Source: Acetobacter lambici (GTDB taxonomy: Bacteria > Pseudomonadota > Alphaproteobacteria > Acetobacterales > Acetobacteraceae). From it: a DNA stretch of 64,000 nucleotides. This document shows positions 15,507 to 17,103 of the stretch, piece after piece (position 1 is the first letter of the stretch; each line of letters begins with the position of its first letter). The translations under genes were made by a program, and so were the position numbers. The stretch is taken from contig NZ_WOTD01000008.1 in the NCBI RefSeq assembly GCF_011516885.1, forward strand, positions 1 to 64,000, written 5' to 3'. The notes below the pieces were generated by a model. It was not told the DNA's origin, did not search any database, and worked only from the letters and a program-made list of their open reading frames with translations.

Positions 15507-15773
15507 TTACTGGAGAGAGGCCGGAACCATGTCGTTCTGCACAATGGCGCCCCATGCGGTTTCCATGTCATCCACCACGGCCAGTAACGAACCGTCTGCT
15601 GCGTAAATAGCGCAGCCTTCCTCTCCATCCTCCAAGGTGGCCGGGCGCGTATAGGCAACCTTGCTCAGCCCAAGGGAACGGAACTGCATATCGGAAAGTT
15701 GCCGCACATCCGCCACATGTTCGGCCTGTGGCAGACCAGCTGGCATGTAACCACCCTGCATGCTGCTTTTCAT
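15507..15773 (-). CDS. DUF1150 family small protein
   Basis: An 88-residue soluble protein matching the DUF1150 pattern: a variable start, then LGLSKVAYTRPATLEDGEEGCAIYAADGSLLAVVDDMETAWGAIVQNDM. This family typically lies beside small heat-shock protein genes in alphaproteobacteria, as here, 19 bases downstream of hsp20. The molecular function is not known. The shared transcript suggests heat-shock control. Confidence 0.85.
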   Translation of the reverse strand: MKSSMQGGYMPAGLPQAEHVADVRQLSDMQFRSLGLSKVAYTRPATLEDGEEGCAIYAADGSLLAVVDDMETAWGAIVQNDMVPASLQ

Positions 15774-15792: not shown

Positions 15793-16293
15793 TTAACTAC
15801 CGTCTACATCCATGACCGGATGCAGCATACGTGGCGTGGGCCGGGGCTTAACGCCTGAACCAGCAGCGCCCTGCCCTTTTTGCCCACCCTGCATGATCTC
15901 GATCTGCTTGACCCTCACCTCCGGCTGCGGGCGGAAAAGATCAATATGCAACAACCCGTTATCCAACCATGCACCGCCAATTTCTATTCCTTCGGCCAGC
16001 ACAAAAGCCTTCTGGAACTGGCGGGAGGCAATACCGCGATGCAGATAAACGCGCTCTTCTCCCTCTTCCACCTGCCGACCACGGATCACAAGCTGGTTGT
16101 CCTCTTGTGTGATCTGGAGATCTTCCATCCTAAAACCGGCAACCGCAAGAGTAATACGCAGGCCGTTGGGGGCTATCTGCTCTATGTTGTAAGGGGGGTA
16201 GCCATCACCCGAACCCTTGCTGGCACGTTCCAACATCTGTTCCAGATGATCAAAACCCAAAAACATGGGCGAGCCAAAAAGCCTGCCTGACAT
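15793..16293 (-). CDS. hspA: Small heat-shock protein, Hsp20 (IbpA-like)
   Basis: A 166-residue ATP-independent holdase. The opening RLFGSPMFLGFDHLEQMLER and the alpha-crystallin domain (about 35-130: YPPYNIEQIAPNGLRITLAVAGF, then GRQVEEGEERVYLHRGIASRQFQKAFVL) match alphaproteobacterial IbpA proteins. The C-terminus carries an extra Gly/Pro-rich tail after the domain. The ATG at 16293 has an AGGAGGAGG ribosome-binding site, chosen over an upstream in-frame start. That site lies inside a predicted temperature-sensitive hairpin, and an RpoH-like promoter lies about 70 bases upstream. Confidence 0.93.
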   Translation of the reverse strand: MSGRLFGSPMFLGFDHLEQMLERASKGSGDGYPPYNIEQIAPNGLRITLAVAGFRMEDLQITQEDNQLVIRGRQVEEGEERVYLHRGIASRQFQKAFVLAEGIEIGGAWLDNGLLHIDLFRPQPEVRVKQIEIMQGGQKGQGAAGSGVKPRPTPRMLHPVMDVDGS

Positions 16294-16295
16294 TG

Positions 16296-16354
16296 TACAA
16301 GCCTCCTCCTTTCTGAGCGAGACGTATAAAACCGGACCCGCCTTGGCATCCGGT
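16296..16354 (-). promoter_or_regulatory. Candidate ROSE-type RNA thermometer in hsp20 5' UTR
   Basis: The leader can form two hairpins. The first is a stable stem pairing ACCGGA with UCCGGU (16331-16354). In the second (16296-16328) UCGCU (16316-16320) faces the AGGA of the ribosome-binding site (16304-16307), with an unpaired or G-G position. A stem of seven pairs and one mismatch extends below it. A UYGCU motif opposite the Shine-Dalgarno is the hallmark of ROSE elements, which open on heating and sit before small heat-shock genes in alphaproteobacteria. The fold was done by hand. Confidence 0.65.
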
Positions 16355-16363
16355 CCCTCCACG

Positions 16364-16391
16364 ATATGGGATAGAGGCGGACACACGCAAC
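16364..16391 (-). promoter_or_regulatory. RpoH (sigma-32)-like promoter of hsp20
   Basis: On the minus strand GTTG is followed after 17 bases by CCCATAT, close to the alphaproteobacterial sigma-32 pattern CTTG-N17-CYTAT-T. The predicted start near 16357 leaves a leader of about 63 bases that contains exactly the two hairpins of the candidate thermometer. Confidence 0.55.
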
Positions 16392-16542
16392 CCTGTGTCC
16401 CGCGTCATTATGGTCTGATGGCCCAACACTGTGGTTTGCGCGCCATATTGTGGCGGCAAAGTGACAGATTTTTTGCGCCAGAACAGCTTTTAATGCCGTT
16501 TTATACTGGCATCCGCCACAACACGACGCTAAATCGGGCTGT

Positions 16543-17103
16543 ATGACAAACGCAGCCCTGACAGACGCCGCATTTTCCGCTGCCTCGGATAAAGCGGCCC
16601 CTCTTACCATCCTGACGCCGCCCCACCCCGTGCTGCGCCAGAAAGCAAGACTGGTCAAACCTGAAGATATGGCAGAAATCCAAAAGATTCTGCCCGGCAT
16701 GTTTGCCGCCATGTATCAGGCCCCCGGCATTGGGCTGGCTGCCCCGCAGGTTGGCCTGAGCCAACGCTTTGTTCTGATCGATCTGGGCGAAAAAGAAAAC
16801 CGCGAGCCCATGATCCTGATCAACCCCGAAATTGTGGCCGAAACGGAAGAAATGTCCACGCGGGAGGAAGGCTGCCTTTCCCTGCCCAGCCAGTATGCCG
16901 AAGTGGTCCGCCCCGAAAAAGTGCGCGTGCGCTGGCACACCATCAATGGGGACAAGCAGGAGCGCGATGTGGATGGCCTGCTGGCCACCTGCATACAGCA
17001 TGAGCTTGACCATCTGGATGGTGTTCTGTTCGTGGACCACCTTTCCGCCCTGCGCCGCAACATGATCCTGCGCCGTCTGGCCAAGGACCTGAAGCGCAAC
17101 TAA
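16543..17103 (+). CDS. def: Peptide deformylase
   Basis: The 186-residue metalloenzyme removes the formyl group from nascent proteins. Motif 1 is GIGLAAPQVG (about residue 59), motif 2 is EEGCLSLP with the metal-binding cysteine (about 110), and motif 3 is QHELDHLDG with the HExxH-type pair (H about 151, H about 155). All are intact. It is followed at once by fmt, which adds the same formyl group to initiator tRNA; def-fmt-truA form one operon. Confidence 0.95.
   Translation: MTNAALTDAAFSAASDKAAPLTILTPPHPVLRQKARLVKPEDMAEIQKILPGMFAAMYQAPGIGLAAPQVGLSQRFVLIDLGEKENREPMILINPEIVAETEEMSTREEGCLSLPSQYAEVVRPEKVRVRWHTINGDKQERDVDGLLATCIQHELDHLDGVLFVDHLSALRRNMILRRLAKDLKRN

What the first reader, a model, noticed from the sequence alone, without database searches (positions are those of the whole stretch)
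16296..16391. ROSE-like RNA thermometer plus RpoH promoter before hsp20-DUF1150
The 5' leader of the small heat-shock gene pairs UCGCU with the AGGA of its ribosome-binding site inside an eight-step lower stem. A second stable hairpin lies upstream, and a sigma-32-like promoter sits at the right distance (63-base leader). ROSE elements are known from rhizobia and other alphaproteobacteria; a copy in an acetic acid bacterium would matter because these bacteria grow in heated fermentations.
Basis: partly seen in the sequence, partly recalled or inferred. Interest (0 to 1): 0.6.

Follow-up and report, generated by a model that had tools for sequence, protein, structure and literature searches.

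The report
Short ROSE-type RNA thermometer, hsp20 operon
The start of this heat-shock gene's message folds so that the ribosome's landing site is hidden, a known bacterial way of sensing heat, and the same fold is kept in front of the same gene in nearly all close relatives examined, although the standard RNA library does not list it.

Summary
On the minus strand, an RpoH-like promoter (TTGCG 16390-16386, CCCATAT 16370-16364) precedes a leader of about 64 nt with two hairpins. The second pairs UCGCU, with one bulged G, to the AGGA of the Shine-Dalgarno of hsp20 (ATG 16293).

It is more than chance: 79 of the 80 nearest hsp20 loci carry the motif 22-35 nt before the start. RNAalifold recovers both hairpins from 34 of them. 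Hairpin I shows many two-sided compensatory changes; hairpin II changes on one side only.

Rfam lists nothing here at gathering score; nearest is ROSE_3, 30.1 against 43 bits.

I read it as a short, two-hairpin ROSE-type thermometer, as known for Pseudomonas ibpA, before an hsp20-DUF1150 operon (DUF1150: family of the Lon activator LarA). A like hairpin precedes 21 of 27 homologs outside the family.

Temperature-dependent opening is untested. Computed melting does not show it, but neither does it for E. coli ibpA. ROSE is already annotated before an hsp20 in Gluconobacter oxydans, so the kind is known; I found no description of this subfamily in the papers searched.

The parts
16386..16390 (-). 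-35 element TTGCG of an RpoH-like promoter (G, not C, before TTG)
   Evidence: such an arrangement before hairpin I in 75 of 79 related loci vs 2.9% of shuffles, with CTTG 71 of 79 vs 1.0%
16364..16370 (-). -10 element CCCATAT
16294..16357 (-). inferred 5' leader, about 64 nt; start site inferred 7 nt after the -10, not mapped
16331..16354 (-). hairpin I, stable, bulged G in the AUGCC/GGGU step, close to the inferred 5' end
   Evidence: two-sided compensatory changes
16301..16323 (-). hairpin II, proposed thermosensing hairpin: UCGCU (16320-16316, bulged G 16318) paired to AGGA of the SD
16305..16310 (-). Shine-Dalgarno AGGAGG inside hairpin II
15793..16293 (-). hsp20 (small heat-shock protein, 166 aa; PF00011)
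15507..15773 (-). DUF1150 gene (88 aa; PF06620, residues 50-87 match), family of the Caulobacter Lon activator LarA, second gene of the presumed operon
   Evidence: a DUF1150 match downstream of hsp20 in 74 of 80 loci

Best explanation
A short ROSE-type RNA thermometer. RpoH transcribes the hsp20-DUF1150 operon after heat or unfolding stress. The 5' leader folds into a stable hairpin near the 5' end (I) and a weaker hairpin (II) that hides the hsp20 Shine-Dalgarno behind UCGCU with one bulged G. At growth temperature the ribosome cannot bind; at heat-shock temperature hairpin II opens and hsp20 is translated. Shown here by sequence: the promoter-like elements, both hairpins, the bulged-G SD pairing, their conservation, the gene order. 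Inferred: the start site, temperature-dependent opening, translational repression, co-transcription of DUF1150 and any LarA-like function of it in this species.
For: Motif C(T/C)1-2CGCTC 22-35 nt before the start in 79 of 80 loci. Bulged-G stem to the SD (seven or eight pairs tested) complete in 75 of the 79 and short by one pair in 4 (3' arm chosen for best pairing). Same rule on real and shuffled leaders: 76 of 80 vs 13.1%. RNAalifold predicts hairpin II with its bulged G and six outer pairs of hairpin I on 34 sequences aligned by sequence only. Pair counts on that alignment: 92.4% of cells paired, slid versions at most 64.3%; 27 cells changed on both sides, shuffles 7.0. RpoH-like promoter before hairpin I in 75 of 79 vs 2.9% of shuffles. 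SD arm mostly paired at 37 C (under 0.3 unpaired) in 71 of 79 loci, against 39% of 90 other SD sites from the same loci. Hairpin II core energy sd 0.64 kcal/mol against 1.95 for shuffled pair columns, 0 of 300 as low. Same two-hairpin design, U(U/C)GCU motif and 61-62-nt leaders as the tested Pseudomonas ibpA thermometers (PMC3669281, abstract and passages). The 30 best of the family model hits all lie directly before a relative of this hsp20.
Against: No temperature experiment. ViennaRNA leaves the SD arm closed from 20 to 60 C (0.13-0.19 unpaired); E. coli ibpA, a tested thermometer, behaves alike, so the computation cannot decide. Hairpin II has no two-sided compensatory change. The number of pairs with two-sided change does not stand out from shuffles (7 vs 6.1, 184 of 500 as high; 6 vs 4.1, 48 of 500); the number of cells does. 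RNAalifold on the 74-row alignment found hairpin I only. No ROSE family reaches gathering score here or in the 20 of 80 relatives scanned. L060 lacks the motif. With strict filters 5 of 14 genomes of the window's genus gave no model match at E 0.01. The energy count ignores relatedness (11 distinct cores, sd 0.8) and used a stand-in loop.
Confidence: 0.85

Rival explanations
1. A permanent low-efficiency leader: the two hairpins set a fixed, low translation rate and protect the 5' end of the mRNA, and heat control comes from RpoH alone.
For: Nearest-neighbour folding shows no opening up to 60 C. Hairpin I starts 8-10 nt after the -10 in 58 of 77 loci with a scored promoter, that is, next to the inferred start, as a 5'-protecting stem would.
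Against: The bulged G is present in every one of the 79 motif loci and the stem energy is nearly constant; a mere lock would be expected to drift to a perfect stem. E. coli ibpA, a tested thermometer, looks equally closed by the same computation.
Confidence: 0.1
2. The conserved leader is a DNA operator bound by a repressor, not an RNA structure.
For: The CGCTC core is nearly invariant, as a binding site would be; ROSE nucleotides were first taken for a transcription-factor site (PMC4166951, passages).
Against: Two-sided compensatory changes (64 cells, shuffles 22.7, nearly all in hairpin I) and a core complementary to the SD across loops of 3-9 nt fit RNA pairing.
Confidence: 0.03
3. Hairpin I followed by UUUU acts as an intrinsic terminator (attenuator) upstream of hsp20.
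For: In this window a GC-rich hairpin is followed by TTTT.
Against: TTT directly after hairpin I occurs in 7 of 79 related loci, and the terminator scan did not list hairpin I.
Confidence: 0.02

Closest known systems
Short ROSE-like RNA thermometers of Pseudomonas ibpA (PMC3669281)
   Same: Two hairpins; U(U/C)GCU paired to the SD in the 3' hairpin; stable hairpin I; 61-62-nt leader; sigma-32 control; small heat-shock gene downstream (abstract and passages).
   Different: Hosts in another class, hsp20-DUF1150 gene pair; the Pseudomonas sequences were not compared here; no experiment here.
Rfam ROSE_3 (RF02523)
   Same: Full-length match over 69 positions with both hairpins and UCGCU facing the SD.
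   Different: 30.1 bits against a gathering score of 43; 0 of 200 Acetobacteraceae genomes over the cut-off and 1 of 385 in the class. That one locus (L166) held no relative of this Hsp20 up to E 1; 5 of the 11 ROSE_3 loci looked at did.
Classical ROSE (RF00435)
   Same: UYGCU opposite the SD before an hsp20; present before another hsp20 of this genome (C75, 65.5 bits) and tabulated in Gluconobacter oxydans (PMC5756330).
   Different: Three-hairpin model of 94 positions that does not match the window leader.
sHSP2-larA operon of Caulobacter crescentus (PMC10665427)
   Same: Small heat-shock gene followed by a DUF1150 gene, predicted operon, sigma-32 controlled (passages).
   Different: The words thermometer, thermosensor and untranslated do not occur in that paper; its leader was not examined here. 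The window's DUF1150 protein ends in SLQ, without the terminal histidine that matters for Lon activation in Caulobacter.

Membership tests
ROSE-type RNA thermometers (as a class) | U(U/C)GCU imperfectly paired to the SD in the 3'-proximal hairpin | tested here: met
   definition from PMC3669281
ROSE-type RNA thermometers (as a class) | located in the 5' leader of a small heat-shock gene | tested here: met
ROSE-type RNA thermometers (as a class) | at least one further stable hairpin upstream | tested here: met
ROSE-type RNA thermometers (as a class) | structure kept by compensatory change | tested here: inconclusive
   met for hairpin I; hairpin II changes on one side only
ROSE-type RNA thermometers (as a class) | temperature-dependent opening and translation | not testable with these tools
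   computed melting uninformative; the E. coli ibpA yardstick also stays closed
Rfam ROSE_3 (RF02523) | score at or above the curated gathering threshold | tested here: not met
   30.1 vs 43 bits
Rfam ROSE (RF00435) | score at or above the curated gathering threshold | tested here: not met
   no match in the window at gathering score, none listed up to E 10 in 16000-16700
RpoH (sigma-32) promoter | CTTG-type -35 and CCAT-type -10 at proper spacing (consensus recalled, from no call) | tested here: inconclusive
   -10 and spacing fit; the window has GTTGCG, so the CTTG form is not met here, though it is in 71 of 79 relatives

The most novel reading that the evidence does not exclude
A short two-hairpin ROSE subfamily, missed by Rfam at its thresholds, is an ancestral control element of the hsp20-DUF1150(larA) gene pair of Alphaproteobacteria. 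It would put a heat-opened RNA switch in front of a holdase chaperone and, by co-transcription or coupling, of a LarA-type Lon activator, with stem stability held nearly constant by balanced substitutions.
Probability: 0.4. Interest if true: 0.6.

Novelty: new member of a known kind. Interest (0 to 1): 0.42.

Why it matters
It adds a family-wide set of short ROSE-type leaders that the standard RNA library misses at its thresholds, with a covariance model that matches in 212 of 397 Acetobacteraceae genomes. It ties a likely thermometer to a gene pair whose second member belongs to the LarA family, and makes testable whether chaperone and protease control share one heat switch. An hsp20 is listed among 24 genes needed for growth at higher temperature in Acetobacter tropicalis (PMC5158111, abstract and passages); which hsp20 that is, is not known.

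Tried and rejected
Computed melting: the SD stays paired to 60 C for the window and to 70 C for the E. coli ibpA yardstick, so it was dropped as a test. The first pair counts and models R1 and R2 used alignments in which the SD arm was out of register for some loop lengths; RNAalifold on the 74-row alignment found hairpin I only, and helix 2 was 73.4 and 68.3% paired. This was mended by aligning sequences with a 4-nt loop. Of the 41 such loci I used 34; L025, L032, L047 and L071 were left out for an insert between the hairpins, L057, L084 and L085 by hand choice. The 74-row alignment (window and 73 of 79 loci) left out L025, L032, L047, L071, L077 and L089; L060 had no motif. A1 held 39 of the 79 loci plus the window, chosen by hand for spread. 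In L045, L050 and L064 the motif pattern hit twice and the hit nearer the gene was used. The hairpin I finder picks the best pairing and is not used as a statistic, but the promoter scan is anchored on it. Set aside: terminator, DNA operator, plain lock (see rivals). The promoter scan found no sigma-70-like site, but shuffles average only 0.6, so this says little. A link to the A. tropicalis hsp20 could not be settled, since the Acetobacter pasteurianus genome looked at has three hsp20 genes. A Gluconobacter genome has two hsp20 genes and RF00435 reached gathering score before neither, so which gene the published G. oxydans element precedes stays open. Model R3 finds neither the two other hsp20 leaders of this genome nor E. 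coli ibpA up to E 1. In one search, 4 of 90 other SD sites had the motif within 55 nt; not looked into. The 2005 survey with more than 40 predicted ROSE elements (cited in PMC4166951) was not read and may already hold some of these leaders.

Full report
What is there. The feature lies on the minus strand, before hsp20 (15793-16293, 166 aa, PF00011 at E 8.7e-16) and a DUF1150 gene (15507-15773, PF06620 at E 5e-7, residues 50-87). Upstream of the hsp20 start are CCCATAT (16370-16364) and TTGCG (16390-16386), 15 nt apart; a start 7 nt after the -10 gives a 64-nt leader. The leader folds into hairpin I (16354-16331) and hairpin II (16323-16301), where GUCUC-G-CUC pairs with GAGGAGGC and one G is bulged. 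Folding energy alone is only moderately low (z -2.34, 7 of 200 shuffles as good; hairpin II alone z -1.74, 13 of 200).

Conservation. A scan of genome contigs with the Hsp20 protein kept the best 80 of 587 loci. By title, 59 of the 80 belong to genera that I know as Acetobacteraceae or bear the family name; 21 are titled more loosely (Proteobacteria, Rhodospirillales, Alphaproteobacteria, bacterium, one Solirubrobacterales). 79 of the 80 hold C(T/C)1-2CGCTC at 22-35 nt before the start; L060 does not. The stem to the SD is complete in 75 of the 79 and short of one pair in 4 (L061, L073, L078, L079, 3' arm chosen for best pairing). With one rule for real and shuffled leaders (last 18 nt kept), 76 of 80 reach six pairs, against 13.1% of shuffles.

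Structure. On 40 sequences (window and 39 loci) aligned by sequence only, hairpin I is paired in 94.7% of cells; 64 cells of the whole structure are changed on both sides against 22.7 in shuffles and at most 18 in slid versions, while the number of pairs with such a change (7) does not exceed shuffles (6.1). On 34 sequences with equal loops, RNAalifold returns hairpin II with its bulged G and the outer six pairs of hairpin I; given the full structure, 92.4% of cells pair (slid versions at most 64.3%), hairpin II 99.3%. Hairpin II pairs vary on one side only, as expected where one arm is the ribosome-binding site. So covariation supports hairpin I strongly, and hairpin II rests on retention.

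Balanced stem. In the hairpin II core of the 79 loci, exactly one of the two pairs next to the outer pair is C-G in 75; in the 4 with two, another pair is broken. With a stand-in loop the core energy is -8.8, sd 0.64 kcal/mol; shuffled pair columns give sd 1.95, 0 of 300 as low. Only 11 distinct cores exist and relatedness is not corrected, so this suggests tuned stability and does not prove it.

Specificity. Model R3, trained on those 34 sequences (none titled Acetobacter), finds the window element at 43.3 bits, E 2.1e-6, in its own genome; the next match has E 1.04. Of the 47 sources left out of training (window and 46 loci), 45 match at the hsp20 leader up to E 1, 36 of them up to E 0.01; L030 and L060 are missed, and three matches lie elsewhere. 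In the family 212 of 397 genomes (77 of 102 genera) match at E 0.01 with strict filters, among them 9 of 14 of the window's genus; in the class 6 of 385, two of which are of the window's family. The 30 best family hits all lie directly before a relative of this hsp20 (L121 is cut by a contig end); of the 5 matches outside the family 4 do, and L130 does not.

Wider range. A protein search of 190 genomes of the class matched in 128; I looked at the 27 best-scoring loci outside the family. 21 of 27 show the bulged-G pairing with six or more pairs, against 5.9% of shuffles; 10 reach seven. Rfam at gathering score lists no ROSE in the 20 of these 27 that I scanned, nor in 20 of the 80 nearer loci.

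Promoter. A TTG -35 and CCAnAT-like -10 at 14-20 nt before hairpin I is found in 75 of 79 loci against 2.9% of shuffles; with CTTG 71 of 79 against 1.0%. The window itself has GTTG. That this is the RpoH consensus is recalled, not from a call.

Comparison with the known. PMC3669281 (abstract and passages) describes two-hairpin ROSE-like thermometers with 61-62-nt leaders in Pseudomonas, where the U(U/C)GCU motif blocks the SD, hairpin II melts and hairpin I stays. The window element has the same anatomy. Rfam ROSE_3 matches it end to end but under threshold. The genome has two further hsp20 genes: one carries classical RF00435 (65.5 bits), the other a UUGCU hairpin, seen by eye, that Rfam does not list. 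The Gluconobacter oxydans element in print is RF00435 (PMC5756330, passages); no start site was detected for it there, and whether it precedes the relative of the window gene was not determined.

Operon. DUF1150 is the family of LarA, an allosteric Lon activator whose gene in Caulobacter is predicted to form a sigma-32 operon with sHSP2 (PMC10665427, passages). A DUF1150 match (tblastn E below 1) lies within 600 nt downstream in 74 of the 80 loci and in 16 of the 27 outside loci. Caulobacter LarA needs its C-terminal end, a histidine included, to activate Lon. 57 of the 74 and 14 of the 16 proteins end in histidine, but the window's and those of the nine Acetobacter loci end in SLQ. A LarA function here, and its dependence on the thermometer, are therefore inferences with one point against them.

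Literature. One held paper has ROSE element, RNA thermometer and Acetobacter together, two have RNA thermometer and acetic acid bacteria, one names DUF1150, one names RF02523; further searches are. No passage that I read describes this leader. The 2005 survey of more than 40 ROSE candidates was not read.

Limits. No temperature data exist here. ViennaRNA keeps the SD closed to 60 C for the window and to 70 C for E. coli ibpA (0.23 unpaired), a tested thermometer, so the computation cannot decide. Verdict: a short ROSE-type thermometer, very likely by anatomy and conservation; function inferred.

Noticed in passing
L001 1381 upstream (own genome, contig C1): A second hsp20 has a leader ending GAACCTTGCTGAACGAGGAGGTTC before ATG, a UUGCU-type hairpin by eye, also seen in four other leaders (L182, L183, L184, L186, from genomes of Acetobacter loci) and not listed by Rfam.
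   Followed up: partly
L002 1914-1997 minus (own genome, contig C75): A third hsp20 carries a classical ROSE element, RF00435, 65.5 bits; in the genus RF00435 matches in 11 of 41 genomes, 9 over the cut-off.
   Followed up: partly
window 15507-15773 and L010-L018: The DUF1150 protein ends in SLQ in the window and the nine Acetobacter loci, and in LLQ in three Gluconobacter loci, while 57 of 74 relatives end in histidine, as Caulobacter LarA does.
   Followed up: partly
L060: The one of the 80 nearest loci without the motif; it has a CTTGCA site but no anti-SD hairpin by eye.
   Followed up: no
L025, L032, L047, L071: A further hairpin-like insert lies between hairpins I and II in these loci, by eye.
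   Followed up: no
window 16302-16285 minus: A weak terminator-like match (5 pairs) overlaps the hsp20 start; shuffles give 1.4 such matches on average in the region.
   Followed up: no
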